Shown piece by piece: positions 3,717 through 36,802 of a stretch of 64,000 nt of DNA. The position numbers and the translations under genes are program-made. The notes under the pieces were generated by a model that had not been told where the DNA came from, did no database searches, and saw nothing but the letters and a program-made list of their open reading frames with translations. The DNA lies in assembly GCA_025517565.1 (NCBI GenBank), contig JAOPKD010000001.1, forward strand, positions 310,001 to 374,000, written 5' to 3'. The stretch comes from Halapricum hydrolyticum. Its GTDB lineage: Archaea; Halobacteriota; Halobacteria; Halobacteriales; Haloarculaceae. Each line of letters begins with the position of its first letter. The stretch's first letter is position 1.

Positions 3717-4475
3717 ATGAAGCGGTTCGCCCTCCGGATCGCACTGATGGCGTACGCGGCGCTCCTGATCGGGCCCGTCGGGTCGCTGTTGCCGGGCAAC
3801 GAGTGGGCGATGCTCGTAGCCGGGGGCGGCGTCGGTGCAGTCGCCGGGATGGTCACAACGGACGTCCGTGACCCGACGGCGTTCGTCAGCACGGCCCCTC
3901 GGGGAATCGCAGGCATCCTCGTCCCGCTGGCGTGGCTCGGGCCGGCGATCGTCCGTGCCGAGTCGGTCGTCTCGCTGTTCGTCAGTCCGTGGTTCGTCGG
4001 TGCGCTGGCCGTGCTCGTCTGGATCGTCGCCCTCCTGCTCGGCCACGAAATCCGCCAGGAGCAACTGCAAGAGCGTCTGCTGCCAGTCGCCACCTTCGAG
4101 GCAGGGCCGCCCGAGACGGTTCGTCGACAGACGAGATACGCCGTCGACGTCTTGCTCGCCGCGACGGCTGTTATCGTCGTCGGAACGGCAGTGCTGGGCG
4201 ACGACGTCGAACTCACGACGTACGTCTGGCTTCCGGCGCTGCTCCCGGTATGGCTCAGTCTGTTCAGCGAGCAAAAACAGTCCGTCGAGATTACCGACGA
4301 GGGGGTTTTCGCCCAGGGCACGCTCCACGAGTGGGAGACGGTCGACGGCTACGAGCGCGACGGCGACGCGCTCCGGCTAACGCGGACCGACTGGTACCGA
4401 TCGACGATACAGTTCGACGTCGAACACATCGACGACGTCGACGCGGTGACGGACGCGCTCGATCGCTATCTTTGA
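3717..4475 (+). CDS. Membrane protein with C-terminal PH-like domain, function unknown
   Basis: A 252-residue protein. Residues 1-180 carry about six hydrophobic segments in pairs (around 5-50, 67-112 and 140-180). The soluble C-terminus (about 185-252) has an alternating strand pattern, VEITDEGVFAQGTLHEWETV and DALRLTRTD, that resembles bacterial PH-like membrane domains. I chose the ATG at 3717, just after an AAGG, because residues encoded upstream fall in the repeat element and look non-coding. The 3' end overlaps the convergent glmM by ten bases. No function can be assigned. Confidence 0.75.
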   Translation: MKRFALRIALMAYAALLIGPVGSLLPGNEWAMLVAGGGVGAVAGMVTTDVRDPTAFVSTAPRGIAGILVPLAWLGPAIVRAESVVSLFVSPWFVGALAVLVWIVALLLGHEIRQEQLQERLLPVATFEAGPPETVRRQTRYAVDVLLAATAVIVVGTAVLGDDVELTTYVWLPALLPVWLSLFSEQKQSVEITDEGVFAQGTLHEWETVDGYERDGDALRLTRTDWYRSTIQFDVEHIDDVDAVTDALDRYL

Positions 4476-5830
4476 GTGACGTCCGCCACCGCTTCTTCGA
4501 CGGCCGACTGCACGTCCGCGAGCATCTCCTCGACGTCCTCGCTCTCGACGTAGACCCGGACGTACGGTTCGGTCCCGCTCGGTCGGACCAGCGTCCAGGA
4601 CCCGTCCGGGAACGACAGGCGTACGCCGTACTCGAGCGAGACTTCGGCATCGGGAAAGGCCTCGGGCAACCGCGTTTCGAGACGGTCCATCACTGCCGAC
4701 TTGTGCTCGTCCGGACAGCGCACTGGATCCTTTCGATAGGGGCGCTCGGTGACCGGTTCGCGCAGCGCGTCGAGACCGCTTTCGGCGACGAGACGGGCGA
4801 ACACGGCTGCGCTGGCCACGCCGTCGATCCACCCGCCGAGTTCGGGATGGACGTGCTTCCAGGGCTCGGCGGCGAAGACGATCGCCGTCTCGTCGGTGGC
4901 TGCAGCCCGGATCTCGGCGATACCCTCGTGAAGAACGCCGAGACCCGTACGCTCGGTACGGCCACCGACAGCTTCGACCCGCTCGTCGATCCGCTCGGAC
5001 GCGTTCGGCGTCGTCAACACGACCGGATCGGCGGCGTCGCTCTCCCTGACGTAGTGTTCGGCCAAGATGGCCAGCACCGTGTCCTCGTGGACGATCTCGC
5101 CGTCACCGTCTACGATCACGATGCGATCGGCGTCGCCGTCGTGGCCGATCCCCAGGTCGACGGCGCCGTGCTCGGCCACGAAGTCACATAGCCCGGTCAG
5201 CGTCTCGGGCGTCGGTTTGCTCCCCCGGGCGTCGAAGTGGCTGTCGACGTTCGCGTTCAGCGCCCGCACGTCCGCCCCGAGTTCGCGCAGCACCTGTGGC
5301 GTCGCGAGCGAGGCCATCCCGTTCCCGCAATCGATTGTCACTCGGAGCCCCTCCAGCGGTGCGCCGTGCTCGCGTGCGTAGTCGGTGATCGTTTCGCGGT
5401 AGACCCCGAGCACGTCCGCGCGGTCGGCACTCGCCCAGTCGGCCCAGTCTGCCGGCTCGACGCCGGCCTCGACGCGTCGCTCGATCCGAGCCTCGGCGTC
5501 GCCGTCGAACTCGACGCCGTCGACGAACAGCTTGATCCCGTTGTCTTCGGGCGGGTTGTGGCTGGCCGTGAGCATGACGCCGTGCTGTCCGCGCGACGCC
5601 AACGCGAGCGTCGGCGTCGGGACTGTCCCGAGTCTGCGGACGCGAGTGCCAGCCGATTCGACGCCGGCCTCGACGGCCGCGGCCAGCGCACTCCCGGACT
5701 GGCGGCCGTCACGGCCGACGACAACTGTCTCCGCCTCGCGGCCGACGGCCCGGCCGACCGACAGCGCCAGCTCCGGCGTGACAGTCTCCTTGACGGGACC
5801 GCGTATCCCGGCCGTTCCGAACAGATCCAT
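4466..5830 (-). CDS. glmM: Phosphoglucosamine mutase / phosphohexomutase
   Basis: A 454-residue alpha-D-phosphohexomutase with all four family domains. The catalytic phosphoserine loop TASHNP has Ser90. The metal loop is DGDADR, the sugar loop lies around residues 325-330, and the C-terminal phosphate loop reads VRPSGTEPYVRVYVE. The N-terminus MDLFGTAGIRG is typical of archaeal GlmM-type enzymes, which make glucosamine 1-phosphate for surface glycans, although phosphomannomutase activity cannot be excluded. It lies 98 bases downstream of psmB on the same strand and converges on the membrane-protein gene. Confidence 0.9.
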   Translation of the reverse strand: MDLFGTAGIRGPVKETVTPELALSVGRAVGREAETVVVGRDGRQSGSALAAAVEAGVESAGTRVRRLGTVPTPTLALASRGQHGVMLTASHNPPEDNGIKLFVDGVEFDGDAEARIERRVEAGVEPADWADWASADRADVLGVYRETITDYAREHGAPLEGLRVTIDCGNGMASLATPQVLRELGADVRALNANVDSHFDARGSKPTPETLTGLCDFVAEHGAVDLGIGHDGDADRIVIVDGDGEIVHEDTVLAILAEHYVRESDAADPVVLTTPNASERIDERVEAVGGRTERTGLGVLHEGIAEIRAAATDETAIVFAAEPWKHVHPELGGWIDGVASAAVFARLVAESGLDALREPVTERPYRKDPVRCPDEHKSAVMDRLETRLPEAFPDAEVSLEYGVRLSFPDGSWTLVRPSGTEPYVRVYVESEDVEEMLADVQSAVEEAVADVTQR

Positions 5831-5928
5831 ATCCGTGGTTGCTTTGCCGACGATAAATAGGCTGTCGGCTGCAGCGTGTCATCTGTCGGCTGAAGCGCGG
5901 CAGAAATCGGGCGTCGAAACGCGGAGGG

Positions 5929-6651
5929 CTAGATGTCGTAGTCGTCGTAAGTCGTGATGTCGACGCCTGCCTCGGTGACCTCGGCGACGCAGAGCCCGTT
6001 TCCGGAGCCGGTGTCGCGCTCGGCGGCAGCCTCGATCGAGACAGCGGCGACTTCGGTGGCCTCCTCGATGCTCATGTCGGGTTCGTAGCGGTCCTCGAGA
6101 GTCCCGTAGGCGACGGTCAGTCCGGAGCCGGTGACGGTGTAGTCGTCTTCCATGACACCGCCGGCGGGATCGATGCTGAAGACGTGGCTGCCCGTCTCGT
6201 CGATCCCACCCAGGATCGGGTTGATCGCGAAGAACGGGCCACCGCGTGCGAAGTTGCCCGCGAGCGTCGAGAGCGCCTGCATGCTCATGTCCTGGCCACG
6301 GCGCGCCTCGTAGAGGTTGACCTCCGCGCGGAGCGTCCGGATGAACGACTGGGCGCCGCCGACACTCCCGACGAGGGTGAGCGCGGCAGTCGGGTGGATC
6401 TGTTCGACCTTCTGGACGCTCTTGTTCGAGACGAAGCGCCCGCCGAGACTGGCCCGGCGGTCGGTCGCGACGACGACGCCTTCCTCGGTCGCGATGCCGA
6501 TAGTCGTCGTACCGGTCTTGTTGACTGTTTCCTCGTCACGGTCGCTGCTGGGAAGCGACCCGAGCTGCGGCTCGTAGGGCGACTCCAGCTGTCGACCGCC
6601 GGGCTGCTGGCGGTGCTGCGAGAACGCGGGTCCCGCGTGTGGGTCGTGCAT
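5929..6651 (-). CDS. psmB: Proteasome beta subunit
   Basis: A 240-residue beta subunit of the archaeal 20S proteasome, the catalytic subunit of the central rings. A propeptide of about 47 residues precedes the autocleavage site in KTG/TTTIGI, making Thr48 the mature N-terminal nucleophile. The Asp17-equivalent (TDRR) and Lys33-equivalent (Lys81 of the precursor, in SVQKVEQI) complete the active site. The long, polar propeptide rich in Gln, Ser and Pro is usual in haloarchaea. It stands 71 bases downstream of the CDP-alcohol phosphotransferase gene. Confidence 0.96.
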   Translation of the reverse strand: MHDPHAGPAFSQHRQQPGGRQLESPYEPQLGSLPSSDRDEETVNKTGTTTIGIATEEGVVVATDRRASLGGRFVSNKSVQKVEQIHPTAALTLVGSVGGAQSFIRTLRAEVNLYEARRGQDMSMQALSTLAGNFARGGPFFAINPILGGIDETGSHVFSIDPAGGVMEDDYTVTGSGLTVAYGTLEDRYEPDMSIEEATEVAAVSIEAAAERDTGSGNGLCVAEVTEAGVDITTYDDYDI

Positions 6652-31784: not shown

Positions 31785-33334
31785 CAGCCACCACCTCCGG
31801 CTGCGGCTTCCTCACCTTCGGCACTACCACCGGCCTCCGGATCGATCGCGTCGCGGATCCCGTCACCGAGTGCGTTCAATCCCGTGACGAGGAGCACGAT
31901 CATCAGTCCCGGAAGCAGCGAGATGTGCCAGGACGGACCCGACACGTAGTCCTGGCCCATCGAGATCGCCCGTCCCCAGGCCGGTGTGGGCGGCGAGATT
32001 CCGAGGCCATTGCCGAGGAACGACAATGCTGCCAGCCCGATGATGATACCCCCTGTCGACATCGACGCGTACACGAGGAGATAGCCGACGATATACGGGA
32101 ACATGTGTTTTCGCATGATCGTGCGGGGCTGCTGTCCGTAGCTTTTGGCGGCCAGTATCCATTCCTCCTGGGCGACCTGTAACGCCGGACCACGGACCGC
32201 CCGCCACAGGAACGGCCAGGTGGTAAACGCGAAGATGATCGCCAACAGGAAACCGCCGTTGAGGACGTTCCCGATCCAGTGATTCGCGAAGACGGCGCTG
32301 ACGAGGATCAACAACAGTAGCCGGGGTATCGAGACGACGCCGTCGGCAGTCGTCAGGATCGTCAGGTCCACGCGGCCGCTGTAATACGCCGAAAACATCG
32401 AGAAGACGGCCGCAATCAGGGCCGCTCCGCCGATCGCCAGGGCTGAAACGATCATCGTAATCCTCGCGCCGCCCATCATGAAGGTGAACAGGTCACGGCC
32501 GTTCGTGAGCGTCCCGAACGGATGGAATCGACCGTAGTCGTCGTAGGACATCGGCCCCACGTTGAACTCGGCAGATCCCTTCGACTTGGAGTTGAAGTTA
32601 GCGTCGCCCGGGAACACCTGATCGACTTCCCCGGTATCCTCGTTGAAGTAGTTGATCCGTTCGCTGTAGGGGCTCTGGATGTTCTGCTCGACCGTCGTCG
32701 GACCGAGCGCCGAACCGAACACCGCCATCGTCAAGAACAGAATGAGCACGAAGATACCGAACTTGCCCCACTGGTGGTTGCTGAGGTTGTCGACGATGTC
32801 GTCGGTCGGCGTCCAGTCCGCCTCCCGGTAGTGATCACGGTAGACGAGCCAGCCTCTGAACACCCAGTAGGCCGTGAACAGCGCGTACGCGAAGATGAGC
32901 GTCGCTCGGAGTGCCCACGCGTAAGCCGGTTCGAGTCCCAGGAACGTCCCTTCCCACGGCCCGTTCGGTCCGGTCTGGTATCCCTGATTCGGGATCACTT
33001 CCCGGCTGAACAGCGTCGGAAGGCCGTCCACGAACCCGCCAGCGTCGCGAAGTACCCCGACGACCGCATACTGGGCGTCCCGGATTGTCTGTGACAGACC
33101 GGACGACACCAGGCCGATCGCAGCGTCCAACAGGCCCGTCACGCCGATCACGACAGCGTCGAGCATGCCGAAGGCGACACCAGCATACGTCGGGAACTCG
33201 ACGGCGATCAACACCAGCATCGGGACGGCCCATTTGAAGAACGGCCTCGGGTTGTTCGCGATGCGGGTATACAGCGATAGTTCGTCGCGTTGCGTGAGAT
33301 CCTCTCGGATCGATTTGGACGTTGTCTCAGACAT
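31784..33334 (-). CDS. Peptide-type ABC transporter permease (DppC-like, extended N-terminus)
   Basis: A 516-residue permease, about 200 residues longer than bacterial DppC. The standard BPD domain occupies about residues 290-495 and contains the coupling-helix motif EEWILAAKSYGQQPRTIMRK. The N-terminal part has extra hydrophobic segments (about 34-90 and 135-165), and the canonical first helix (GKFGIFVLILFLTMAVFGSAL) starts only near residue 190, followed by a large extracellular stretch rich in Asp, Asn and Ser. It overlaps the downstream ATPase gene by one base and the upstream permease gene by one base. Confidence 0.9.
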   Translation of the reverse strand: MSETTSKSIREDLTQRDELSLYTRIANNPRPFFKWAVPMLVLIAVEFPTYAGVAFGMLDAVVIGVTGLLDAAIGLVSSGLSQTIRDAQYAVVGVLRDAGGFVDGLPTLFSREVIPNQGYQTGPNGPWEGTFLGLEPAYAWALRATLIFAYALFTAYWVFRGWLVYRDHYREADWTPTDDIVDNLSNHQWGKFGIFVLILFLTMAVFGSALGPTTVEQNIQSPYSERINYFNEDTGEVDQVFPGDANFNSKSKGSAEFNVGPMSYDDYGRFHPFGTLTNGRDLFTFMMGGARITMIVSALAIGGAALIAAVFSMFSAYYSGRVDLTILTTADGVVSIPRLLLLILVSAVFANHWIGNVLNGGFLLAIIFAFTTWPFLWRAVRGPALQVAQEEWILAAKSYGQQPRTIMRKHMFPYIVGYLLVYASMSTGGIIIGLAALSFLGNGLGISPPTPAWGRAISMGQDYVSGPSWHISLLPGLMIVLLVTGLNALGDGIRDAIDPEAGGSAEGEEAAAGGGG

Positions 33335-34422
33335 TATTGGGTATCCTCCAGACTGATACGTGGGTCGATATACGTGTACAGCAGGTCCTGTACGATGTTC
33401 ACGGTGACCTGGATAATGACGAAGATGAACACGAGCGCCATCACCAGCGGGATATCAGGCCCGAGGATGGACCTGAAGAACAGGTTCCCGAGCCCGTTGA
33501 TCCCGAACACCTGTTCGACGAGGACGGATCCACCGATCAGCAGGTAGAACTCGCCCATGATAACTGGCAACAGCGGGATGATCGCGTTCCGTCCGACGTG
33601 TTTGTAGATGATTTTCCGGCCGGAGACCCCCTTCGATTTGGCGGTATCGACGTATTTGGAGTTGATACTTTCGAGGACGGCCGTTCGGCCGATCCGGACC
33701 TCGTTACCCATCGACGACGAGCCGAGGACCAGCGCCGCCGGAAGGATCCACTTGAACGCGATAGCCATCGGTATGAGGTTCGGAACCGGAATCGCAAGCG
33801 CTTCGAGGAGCGGGATTCCCTCGAAGACATGATATAACGTAAACAGGTTGTTGAGGACGTCTGGTGTGCCGGTGACGGTCGTCGTCACGATGAAGTCTTT
33901 GTACCAGTCGAGGGCGCCACCAGCAGTGATCAGACCGGCGAGGATCACGGCGAGCCAGAAGTTCGGCATGGCACGCCAGATGATGCCGAAGCCGGACGCG
34001 AAGTAATCGCGGTACGTGTTCGCCCGCAGGCCAGCATACAGGCCCAGCGGAATGCCGACGAACAGCGCGATCAAGACCGACCAGAACCCGAGCCAGATGG
34101 TCGCGGGCATGCGGCCGACGATGAGATCGATGACGGGCGTCTGGCGCTGGACCGTCCAGGACTGGCCGAACTCGAGCGTGAACAGGTCCCACATTACTCG
34201 CAGGTACTGATCCCACAGCGGCACCGGTTCACCGTTCGGATAAATGATGTTTAGCTGGATCCGGAGCTGCCTGATGTCTTCAGGCGTTGCCTGCCGGCCG
34301 AGGATAGTCCCGACCGGGTCGATCGGACCCAGATAGAGGATAAGAAACGACAGTGTCAGCCCAAAGAGCATGACGGGGACGGCCAGCAGGAGACGCTTGA
34401 TGAGGTAGAGTCCCCGGTTCAT
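33334..34422 (-). CDS. Peptide-type ABC transporter permease (DppB-like)
   Basis: A 362-residue permease with six membrane helices. The N-terminal MNRGLYLIKRLLLAVPVM is typical of DppB/OppB. A long extracellular loop (about 35-95) follows helix one. The coupling helix reads SKYVDTAKSKGVSGRKIIYK. It pairs with the DppC-like protein, whose gene it overlaps by one base. It is separated from the binding-protein gene by 231 bases. Confidence 0.93.
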   Translation of the reverse strand: MNRGLYLIKRLLLAVPVMLFGLTLSFLILYLGPIDPVGTILGRQATPEDIRQLRIQLNIIYPNGEPVPLWDQYLRVMWDLFTLEFGQSWTVQRQTPVIDLIVGRMPATIWLGFWSVLIALFVGIPLGLYAGLRANTYRDYFASGFGIIWRAMPNFWLAVILAGLITAGGALDWYKDFIVTTTVTGTPDVLNNLFTLYHVFEGIPLLEALAIPVPNLIPMAIAFKWILPAALVLGSSSMGNEVRIGRTAVLESINSKYVDTAKSKGVSGRKIIYKHVGRNAIIPLLPVIMGEFYLLIGGSVLVEQVFGINGLGNLFFRSILGPDIPLVMALVFIFVIIQVTVNIVQDLLYTYIDPRISLEDTQ

Positions 34423-34653
34423 CGGCCGACCACCACTGTTGATGCAGACCGATTCATCCGTCGAAGGTCGGTGCCACCTCCGCCGACGCCACAGCCCGGA
34501 ATCGCCTCGTCACACGCTCGAACCGCGTTGTGCGAACGAGATAACGCTGGGGGCAGACGAAGGGATGCTCTCTGAGCTAGACACATGGTACGCAAGCTTA
34601 CCTGAGAAATGCAAGTGCGGAGGTTTAACTATATTGATCCGGCGGGCGCGTCG

Positions 34654-36507
34654 TTACTCCTGCCAGTGGGCCTGGTACCCCTCAGGACCGTCGGGGAAAA
34701 CCTGTGGCGGCGTGAGGTGGAACGCCGATTCACCACGGCCCTTGAAGACGTTGCTGACGAACTGGTCGCGAGTGATGACGTAAGCCATCGCCTGCCGGAC
34801 AGGCTTGGGAACCTCCTGCATGTTGAACGCGATGTAGAACGTGTCGATCGTCGGCGTCCGCGCCATGTTGACGGTCTTGCCGTCGCCGATCGGACCGTAC
34901 TCACCCAGCTGTGTGACACCGTCTTCGTCCTGGAAGTTGACCAGACTCTCGTCGTACTGGGAGGTCGGGATCGCCGACACGTCCGCGTTTTCGTTGAGGA
35001 ACCGGTTGTAGATGGCGTTGGGGTCGGACTGGATTCCCGTCCGGATCTCGCCGACCGCCGGTTCGCCGTCGTGGTAGTCCTCGAACGCACTCGCCCGGAA
35101 CTCGCCACCGATTCCGGGTTCCCAGCTCTCGAAGACGAAGGGCCCACAGCCGACGGGGTTCGTCGAGAACTCCTGCCAGTCCATGTCGCCGTCGTAGCCC
35201 TCGATGTCGCCAACGATGCCTTCGGGGACGACCGAGAACGCCGAGTACGCCAGCACCTCGAGCGTGTAGCCGAACGCTTCCCGGAGCGTGACCGTGAAGG
35301 TGTAATCGCCGGTCGCCTCGACAGCGGTCGAGCCGGGGACGACGCCGCCATCGTCGTTTTCCTCGCGATCGATGTTGAGGACGCTGAGCGGGAAGTACGT
35401 GTTCGTGGAGTTGGTCGACTCGACGAGCCGCCGGATCGAGTAGACGACGTCGTCGGCGGTAACCTCGCCGTAATCGCCGTGGAACTGGATACCCTCCTTG
35501 AGCGTGAACTCGTACTCGGTGAGGTCGTCGCTGACCGAGTAGTCTTCGACGATGAGGGGTTCGACTTCGACGGACCCGTTGACGTAGTTCAGCGGGGCGT
35601 CGAACATGTCCATGACCTTGTCGCCACTGGCGGTGTTACCGGAGGCGATCGGGTCGAGAGAATTGAACGTCGGCGAGGTCAGGCCGAGCGTGTCGCTGCC
35701 CTCCAGGCTGTTCACGGAGGTGCTGGTTTTCGCCCGGGAGCCGCCCATCCCGCCGGGTGGGTTGTAGTCGACGCGGTCGTACCAGTAGGAGTCGGCGACG
35801 TTGTGGTAAATCGGGAGCAACGCAGCCGAGTCCCAGAGCAGTTCTTCCATCCGCCGGGTCGCTTCCGCACGGGTCTGTACGGCGTCGTCGGAATTACCCG
35901 GGTTGTTCTGAATCCTGTCGAACTGCTCGGTCATGCCGTCCCGGACCTCGGTGTCGGTGTAGGCGTCCTCGGTCCAGAACAGACGGGCGCCGTTGGGGGT
36001 AGCACCCTCGGCGCCGTAGATCGTGTTCTCCGGATCGACCAGCTGCAGGAAGTTCCGCGGGGCTGGATAGTCAGCGATCCACCCGAGCGTGTACGCCTGC
36101 ATGTCCCCGTTCTCGGTCCGATCGAGCAGTTGCCCGAAGTCGGCCGAGGACCGATTCATGTCGATATAGGCCTGTTCCAGCCGTGCCTCAATCGTCGTCG
36201 CCATTTCCTCCCAGGCCGGGGAATTATACTGGAGCCAGTCCAGCTGGAAGCGGTTGTCCTCGCCGTAGCCGGCATCTTCCATTACGGACCGGGCTTCATT
36301 GATGAGATTTTCGTTAGCACCGTACGGATACGACACGCTGGATCCGGGAGTACCAGTGGGCGTTCCGTTGCCGTTACCGTTGCCGTTTCCGTTGCCGTTT
36401 CCGTTGCCGTCGTCGTCACCGCTACAGCCAGCGAGGCCGACGGTAAGGGCCGACGCACCGGTGGCCTGCAGGAACCGACGTCGCTTCATTTGGTTGTCTT
36501 CAGACAT
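34654..36507 (-). CDS. Substrate-binding lipoprotein of SBP family 5, apparently circularly permuted
   Basis: A 617-residue Tat lipoprotein. The twin-arginine segment MKRRRFLQATG and the lipobox LAGC (Cys28) are followed by a Gly-Asn repeat linker (residues 34-48). Next come residues 60-262, which match the C-terminal part of family 5 (YPYGANENLINEARSVMEDA, then GWIADYPAPRNFLQL, then LPIYHNVADSYWYDRVDY). A short linker (about 263-270) leads to residues 271-617, which match the N-terminal and middle parts (LGLTSPTFNSLDPI, FTLKEGIQFHGDYG, NPVGCGPFVFESWEPG, VPKPVRQAMAYVITR). The chain stops at HWQE, where normal members continue into YPYG. Start at ATG 36507 after a TTTAAA box. It supplies peptide or similar ligand to the downstream importer. 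Confidence 0.88.
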   Translation of the reverse strand: MSEDNQMKRRRFLQATGASALTVGLAGCSGDDDGNGNGNGNGNGNGNGTPTGTPGSSVSYPYGANENLINEARSVMEDAGYGEDNRFQLDWLQYNSPAWEEMATTIEARLEQAYIDMNRSSADFGQLLDRTENGDMQAYTLGWIADYPAPRNFLQLVDPENTIYGAEGATPNGARLFWTEDAYTDTEVRDGMTEQFDRIQNNPGNSDDAVQTRAEATRRMEELLWDSAALLPIYHNVADSYWYDRVDYNPPGGMGGSRAKTSTSVNSLEGSDTLGLTSPTFNSLDPIASGNTASGDKVMDMFDAPLNYVNGSVEVEPLIVEDYSVSDDLTEYEFTLKEGIQFHGDYGEVTADDVVYSIRRLVESTNSTNTYFPLSVLNIDREENDDGGVVPGSTAVEATGDYTFTVTLREAFGYTLEVLAYSAFSVVPEGIVGDIEGYDGDMDWQEFSTNPVGCGPFVFESWEPGIGGEFRASAFEDYHDGEPAVGEIRTGIQSDPNAIYNRFLNENADVSAIPTSQYDESLVNFQDEDGVTQLGEYGPIGDGKTVNMARTPTIDTFYIAFNMQEVPKPVRQAMAYVITRDQFVSNVFKGRGESAFHLTPPQVFPDGPEGYQAHWQE

Positions 36508-36534
36508 CCTGTGCAATTCATTGGCAGGGTGAGA

Positions 36535-36540
36535 TTTAAA
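36535..36540 (-). promoter_or_regulatory. TATA box for the ABC operon
   Basis: TTTAAA lies 28-33 bases ahead of the binding-protein ATG at 36507. It supports that ATG over an in-frame TTG at 36516. Confidence 0.5.
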
Positions 36541-36802
36541 AGTACCGCCTGTGGAGATGAGCCGCGGGTGGTGCGAAAACGTCCCAATTATTGAGTGAGT
36601 ACCCCTATTGACTGAACATATCTCCAGACATGTTGTACGTCAACAGGTATGAGAGGATCGAACTCGGCGCGGTAATCTTAAATATTAATCATTATGGGCT
36701 AGAGCGGTAACACAGTATTCTGACCAGACACCTCAGCAGTCATCCGTTTCGTGCGCAACGCTTCTGGTAAGTCTTAAGGTAGGAGCAACCGACTGGAGCC
36801 AC

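What the first reader, a model, noticed from the sequence alone, without database searches (positions are those of the whole stretch)
34654..36507. Circularly permuted substrate-binding protein in a peptide ABC operon
In family 5 binding proteins the order is signal, then the LDP/ytF-L-gv-F block, then the GxGP and vRxAxxyai blocks, then the AkxLLxeaG and gwxxD block. Here the order after the Tat lipoprotein signal and Gly-Asn linker is reversed. Residues 60-262 are the usual C-terminal part (starting YPYGANENLINEA and ending RVDYNPPGGMGGSRAK). Residues 271-617 are the usual N-terminal and middle parts (starting LGLTSPTFNSLDPI), and they end at HWQE, exactly where normal members run on into YPYG. 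The original N- and C-termini are joined by a short linker, and both lie in the same lobe in known structures, so the permuted chain could fold. The permease and ATPase genes downstream are intact. Tandem duplication with loss of the outer parts is one route; an assembly error is another.
Basis: partly seen in the sequence, partly recalled or inferred. Interest (0 to 1): 0.86.

Follow-up and report, generated by a model that had tools for sequence, protein, structure and literature searches.

The report
Repeatedly re-cut archaeal nutrient-binding protein
A salt-loving archaeon carries a nutrient-catching protein whose two halves are joined in swapped order, and a family tree of its relatives needs at least seven such re-cuttings at three points, two of them used more than once, which is likely tolerated because these proteins are predicted to be exported already folded.

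Summary
The gene (minus strand, 36507-34654) encodes a 617-aa Tat-type lipoprotein whose SBP_bac_5 halves are swapped. It is not an assembly error: the order is found full-length in 26 of 391 haloarchaeal genomes (own included; nine on a single contig) and in 88 of 120 listed homologues. dN/dS to two relatives is 0.14-0.15.

The larger result is that the swap is one of several. In 217 distinct relatives the chain is opened at four places: canonical (62), the window's CP1 (105), CP2 (9) and CP3 (41). A tree of re-rotated cores needs 7 register changes (CP1 once, CP2 four times, CP3 twice). One origin for CP2 or for CP3 is rejected; a permease/ATPase tree agrees. One CP2 lineage keeps a CP1-like lipoprotein linker as an internal scar, so it was probably permuted twice. 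A distant, separately permuted subfamily exists, with a member in this genome.

Function is inferred: a peptide-type binding protein for the adjacent Dpp-like importer. Origin by tandem duplication, and tolerance through folded Tat export, are hypotheses. Eight paper searches listed no prior report.

The parts
34654..36507 (-). permuted SBP_bac_5 lipoprotein gene, 617 aa (CP1 register), including stop
36424..36507 (-). residues 1-28: twin-arginine signal with lipobox LAGC
   Evidence: sequence; twin-Arg plus lipobox pattern in 100 of 105 distinct CP1 cores
36334..36423 (-). residues 29-58: Gly-Asn-rich flexible linker
   Evidence: pLDDT <50 for residues 1-57
35722..36333 (-). residues 59-262: canonical C-terminal part (blocks A+B), carrying GWIAD; D146 aligns with DppA D408
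35938..35973 (-). residues 179-190: loop where CP3 relatives have their termini (homologous position, approximate)
35698..35721 (-). residues 263-270: joint of the canonical C- and N-termini
34657..35697 (-). residues 271-617: canonical N-terminal and middle part (blocks C+D)
35341..35361 (-). residues 383-389: loop where CP2 relatives have their termini (homologous position, approximate)
33334..34422 (-). DppB-like permease
   Evidence: PF00528 109.3 bits
31784..33334 (-). DppC-like permease
   Evidence: PF00528 78.5 bits
30702..31784 (-). DppD-like ATPase
   Evidence: PF00005, PF08352
29368..30792 (-). DppF-like ATPase (exact start uncertain)
   Evidence: PF00005, PF08352

Best explanation
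The gene encodes a circularly permuted family 5 (SBP_bac_5) binding lipoprotein that is predicted to work as the ordinary peptide-type binding subunit of the Dpp-like ABC importer encoded directly downstream. SHOWN: the halves are swapped; the order is conserved, with dN/dS about 0.15; the downstream operon order is the same in 16 of 18 regions looked at, all four registers among them; the tree needs seven register changes at three opening loops (CP1, CP2, CP3), CP2 and CP3 arising more than once. INFERRED: the chain still folds into the Venus-flytrap domain pair and the old termini are bridged by a short joint; the lipid anchor now enters the fold at what is, in canonical members, the middle of the chain. 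INFERRED for the route: in-frame tandem fusion of two copies followed by loss of the outer parts, which can repeat on an already permuted gene (CP1 to CP2 in Haloglomus). INFERRED for tolerance: these binding proteins are predicted Tat lipoproteins, so they would fold before export and hang on long unstructured linkers, which would relax constraints on where the chain begins.
For: Swapped order. Conservation: 88 of 120 listed; 26 of 391 genomes. Four registers among 269 sequences (CP1 139, CP0 63, CP3 41, CP2 10, 16 fragments/weak/unassigned; duplicates included); 217 distinct cores. Tree: 7 changes, CP2 four and CP3 two, both forced by starred branches. AU tests reject all-CP2 as one clade (p 1.5e-59), all-CP3 (1.5e-47) and CP1 without the nested CP2 (5e-7). 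The DppB+C+D tree shows the same nesting (CP2 L168 inside CP1, CP2 L154 with CP0 L165, CP3 L156 with CP0 L159), 6 changes among 19 operons. Operon order SBP-B-C-D-F in 16 of 18 regions. Scar: linkers ending F-x-GLD-x-YPY occur in 20 of 139 CP1 entries (some are one gene twice), and FDGLSG-YPY or FNGLKG-YPY appears inside Haloglomus-type CP2. A tandem-fused SBP in one open frame exists in a haloarchaeon (L197). dN/dS 0.14 and 0.15. [quoted passage not shown]
Against: No experiment shows folding, binding or transport. The substrate is unknown: the DppA R355 position seems not conserved, and CP3 entries have Ser, not Asp, at the D408 position in 40 of 41. The tandem-fusion example lies in a different SBP_bac_5 subfamily. 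CP2 P0089 lies within the CP1 clade on an unstarred branch (96/75) and bears no scar. The AlphaFold model of a canonical member was poor (pLDDT 59), so no permuted-versus-canonical model comparison was made, and the structural aligner covered only the rear part. AlphaFold may place the halves from memory of the fold.
Confidence: 0.88

Rival explanations
1. Assembly error or collapsed tandem duplication in this genome.
For: The genome is in 52 contigs.
Against: Same order full-length in 26 of 391 genomes, nine of them on one contig, and in proteins from several databases.
Confidence: 0.01
2. The permutation is real but came from gene fission and re-fusion (or cut-and-paste recombination between paralogues), not from tandem duplication.
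For: The D/A scar of Haloglomus-type CP2 is expected under fission-fusion too. CP1 and canonical SBP genes occur together in one genome (for example G002 and G017).
Against: A tandem-fused pair in one open frame exists (L197), as do two neighbouring SBP genes of one register (L200). I noticed no split SBP gene, but did not search for one.
Confidence: 0.3
3. The registers are adaptive: moving the lipid anchor to another lobe changes how the binding protein docks on its permease or is released, so permutants are selected rather than merely tolerated.
For: Reuse of the CP2 and CP3 opening sites; CP1 and CP3 kept over large clades; dN/dS 0.12-0.31 in four CP3 pairs.
Against: Reuse of sites is also expected if only a few loops tolerate opening. 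The permease/ATPase tree keeps step with the SBP tree, but I did not look for register-specific permease changes. Lobe positions of the openings rest on recalled DppA domain limits.
Confidence: 0.25
4. A decaying gene: the permuted protein no longer binds or transports.
For: No functional data.
Against: dN/dS about 0.15; of 17 conserved columns picked for a look, 15 are invariant in all 139 CP1 entries and two lack one entry by a gap; signal peptide and operon intact.
Confidence: 0.02

Closest known systems
DppA/OppA, cluster C substrate-binding proteins (PF00496)
   Different: Halves in swapped chain order; Tat lipoprotein signal now precedes the former C-terminal part
Circularly permuted glycine-betaine-binding proteins, molybdate-binding proteins and CysB described with CPSARST (PMC2395249, one named section read)
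   Same: Natural circular permutation among ABC binding proteins
   Different: Other binding-protein types; detected by structure at <24% identity; the section read does not describe repeated permutation traced on a tree
Multi-register families such as DNA methyltransferases (named in PMC2395249 passages and in the first third of PMC3320104)
   Same: One fold with circular permutation and permutation-by-duplication intermediates
   Different: Those are enzymes; here the permutants are exported binding proteins, some 65-68% identical across registers (P0051, P0055, P0056), so events can be placed on a tree and a scar is visible

Membership tests
SBP_bac_5 (PF00496) | Score above Pfam gathering cut-off | tested here: met
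   193.2 bits against 32.4
SBP_bac_5 (PF00496) | Profile matched in one colinear stretch | tested here: not met
   Two stretches in reversed order; contrast 31 of 31 matches in 7 bacterial plasmids in one stretch (that profile ends before the CP3 site, so CP3-type openings would be missed)
SBP_bac_5 (PF00496) | Two-lobe fold of OppA/DppA | tested here: inconclusive
   Confident AlphaFold2 model; 266-617 align with the N-terminal 2/3 of the fold; residues 59-262 not covered by the aligner
Dpp/Opp peptide importer subunit | Encoded with two BPD_transp_1 permeases and two ABC_tran+oligo_HPY ATPases | tested here: met
Dpp/Opp peptide importer subunit | NCBIfam equivalog cut-off for a DppA/OppA-type model | tested here: not met
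   Best NCBIfam match 81.4 bits against cut-off 650; none of 10 listed models reaches its cut-off
Dpp/Opp peptide importer subunit | Ligand-binding Asp (DppA D408) | tested here: met
   D146 in 139 of 139 CP1, 54 of 63 CP0 and 10 of 10 CP2 entries; Ser in 40 of 41 CP3
Dpp/Opp peptide importer subunit | Ligand-binding Arg (DppA R355) | tested here: inconclusive
   Falls one residue outside the alignment, opposite Leu92
Dpp/Opp peptide importer subunit | Peptide binding and uptake | not testable with these tools
   needs biochemistry
Haloarchaeal Tat lipoprotein | Twin arginine plus lipobox | tested here: met
   sequence; pattern in 100 of 105 CP1, 51 of 62 CP0, 8 of 9 CP2, 39 of 41 CP3 distinct cores

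The most novel reading that the evidence does not exclude
Haloarchaeal SBP_bac_5 proteins are a natural circular-permutation experiment: because they fold in the cytoplasm, leave by Tat and hang from the membrane on long linkers, their chain start is nearly free to move, so the family has been re-cut again and again (at least seven times in one subfamily, once more in a distant one, once on top of an earlier permutation) at a few reusable loops, moving the membrane tether from lobe to lobe without changing the operon.
Probability: 0.45. Interest if true: 0.85.

Novelty: new variant of a known kind. Interest (0 to 1): 0.73.

Why it matters
Natural circular permutations are usually known as old events between distant proteins (general knowledge). 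Here one gene position in a conserved operon shows repeated permutations that can be placed on a tree, including a second permutation on top of a first with a readable linker scar. That makes open questions testable: how permutations arise, which loops allow them, and whether Tat export of folded proteins frees a fold from its N-to-C order. Practically, profile searches split or truncate such proteins, and the natural opening sites could guide biosensor design.

Tried and rejected
Assembly error: rejected. Remnant of a second copy near the gene: none found. A reading in normal order: rejected. Using the canonical AlphaFold model: dropped, confidence too low. Viral contigs: no relative of P0055. 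L189 was fetched as a second-subfamily candidate and later taken as canonical with a long linker, since its PF00496 match runs 18-333 in one piece; it was still among the rows of the profiles and of the 141. AU tests for 'three CP2 near CP1' and 'L087 with P010x' did not finish and were not repeated. Overlap of terminal residues in CP2 P0104 (TVEQ) was seen but is too short to argue from. One search filed P0106 as canonical; the doubled-template mapping corrected it to CP2. The quick tree with very distant outgroups was replaced. Rows come from a sequential aligner; that they leave out residues 59-262 shows nothing. and one search scored at most 3 candidates per genome and one search lists a capped set of rows, so canonical and CP3 genes are undercounted there. 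Paper searches listed no report of circular permutation in family 5 binding proteins; only open PubMed Central papers are searched, and searches showed 25 of 414 and 15 of 586 papers. A search for permutation words in the OpuA structure paper (PMC2861598) found none.

Full report

NOT AN ARTEFACT. Of 391 haloarchaeal genomes, 26 (the window's own included) hold a one-piece match over essentially the whole protein in this order, nine of them on a single contig. Of 276 homologues found in the large protein set, 120 are listed, and 88 of these have this block order. Against two same-genus relatives dN/dS is 0.14 and 0.15.

FOUR REGISTERS. Mapping the relatives on a doubled template gave an unexpected result. 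Of 269 sequences, 139 are opened where the window protein is (CP1, residues 617|59), 63 at the canonical place (CP0, near 263-270), 10 near 383-395 (CP2) and 41 near 150-200 (CP3); 16 were fragments, weak or unassigned. With identical cores removed there are 105, 62, 9 and 41. These are not sampling frequencies, since sequences were fetched by similarity. In the CP3 members printed from both CP3 groups, those whose end is shown close soon after a YTNW/YYLDW-like motif and start again before the next helix; in CP2 the chain opens in the variable loop before PGSxAVEA. In 391 genomes, a CP2 query at E <= 1e-95 met a full-length CP2 gene in only two, G366 and G106.

INDEPENDENT EVENTS. After rotating the cores to one register, a careful tree of 67 rows needs 7 register changes: CP1 once, CP2 four times, CP3 twice; starred branches force the CP2 and CP3 counts. 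The rows were chosen from the 253 register-assigned sequences by identity thresholds (71), then 11 were dropped and 7 neighbours added by hand. Holding all CP2, all CP3, or all CP1 without the nested CP2 together is rejected (p 1.5e-59, 1.5e-47, 5e-7). The order SBP-B-C-D-F is the same in 16 of 18 regions, which cover all registers; two regions (L152, L162) hold the SBP without these neighbours. So the binding-protein gene appears to have been permuted in place.

A PERMUTATION ON A PERMUTATION. Haloglomus irregulare F16-60 (L168) and three further database proteins (P0051, P0055, P0056) are CP2, and those placed in the tree (P0051, P0055) are nested in CP1. Where block D meets block A they carry an insert ending FDGLSG-YPYSPN/E or FNGLKG-YPYSPN. 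Of 139 CP1 entries, 20 (some are one gene twice) have F[DTGSQ]GLD[AS]-YPY as the end of their lipoprotein linker. The simplest reading is that the CP1 linker became an internal scar when CP1 was permuted again. The other CP2 proteins printed lack the insert, as expected if they came from CP0; P0089, which sits in the CP1 clade, lacks it too, which does not fit neatly.

A SECOND PERMUTED SUBFAMILY. A PF00496 search of 18 haloarchaeal genomes showed 8 open frames with reversed profile order (three of them CP1 genes), and many matches stopping at profile ~287. I fetched 20 such loci. In these and in L003 of the window's own genome the N-part profile match starts at residue 241 or later of the stop-to-stop frame; the front part was recognised by the CP-family C-part profile in only two (L174, L178). 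L189 was then set aside as canonical with a long linker. Profiles of the subfamily's two halves match the canonical protein L033 in swapped order (54.6 and 176 bits), and profile-profile comparison pairs the front half with the canonical C-part (probability 94%) and the rear half with the N-part (100%). Most chains end near an AAKxxFxxAGYxYDxxGxL motif (pattern found in 14 of 21), about 30 residues past the CP1 opening, and 131 of 141 aligned members share this register, the other ten being fragments, distant members or unclear. As a control, 31 of 31 PF00496 matches on 7 bacterial plasmids are in one colinear stretch; CP3-type openings would escape that profile.

FUNCTION AND MECHANISM. The neighbours are two BPD_transp_1 permeases and two ABC_tran/oligo_HPY ATPases. 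D146 aligns with DppA D408, which binds the peptide amino group (PMC8566422, passages read), and is kept in 139 of 139 CP1, 54 of 63 CP0 and 10 of 10 CP2 entries, but is Ser in 40 of 41 CP3. The R355 partner appears not to be kept (it falls one residue outside the alignment). So a peptide-type ligand is likely for CP1 and the exact substrate is unknown. The route is inferred: tandem fusion and trimming, as in the permutation-by-duplication model (PMC3320104, first of three parts read). One open frame with two PF00496 matches in tandem behind one twin-arginine signal exists in a haloarchaeon (L197), though in another subfamily. [quoted passage not shown] That Tat carries folded proteins is general knowledge. 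Proteins folded before export and tethered by linkers of median 15-30 residues should care little where the chain starts. That CP1 and CP3 open in the C-lobe and CP2 in the outer N-lobe rests on recalled DppA domain limits.

NOVELTY. Circular permutation is well known, and is recorded among glycine-betaine- and molybdate-binding proteins (PMC2395249, section read). Eight full-text searches listed no report for family 5 binding proteins or of repeated permutation of this kind in haloarchaea; only open PubMed Central papers were searched, and two of the lists were long and shown in part.

Noticed in passing
G000:C1:448926-449888 (L003), outside the window: The same genome carries a second, distantly related SBP_bac_5 gene that is also permuted, with a different opening point.
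   Followed up: yes
L197 (G010:C1:2361000-2368500): One open frame holds two SBP_bac_5 copies in tandem behind one twin-arginine signal (no lipobox Cys seen).
   Followed up: partly
L200 (G040:C2:221500-231500): Two second-subfamily permuted SBP genes lie near each other on one strand.
   Followed up: no
CP3 loci, for example L014, L017, L056, L058, L059, L090-L121: CP3-register proteins have Ser in place of the ligand-binding Asp (40 of 41), which suggests a different ligand.
   Followed up: no
L169 (Haloquadratum J07HQW1), 3983-6630: Matches to a second DppB-C-D set lie directly upstream of the CP1 operon.
   Followed up: no
window 34609-36594, + strand: A 661-aa open frame runs antisense over the whole SBP gene; probably a by-product of G+C-rich coding sequence.
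   Followed up: no
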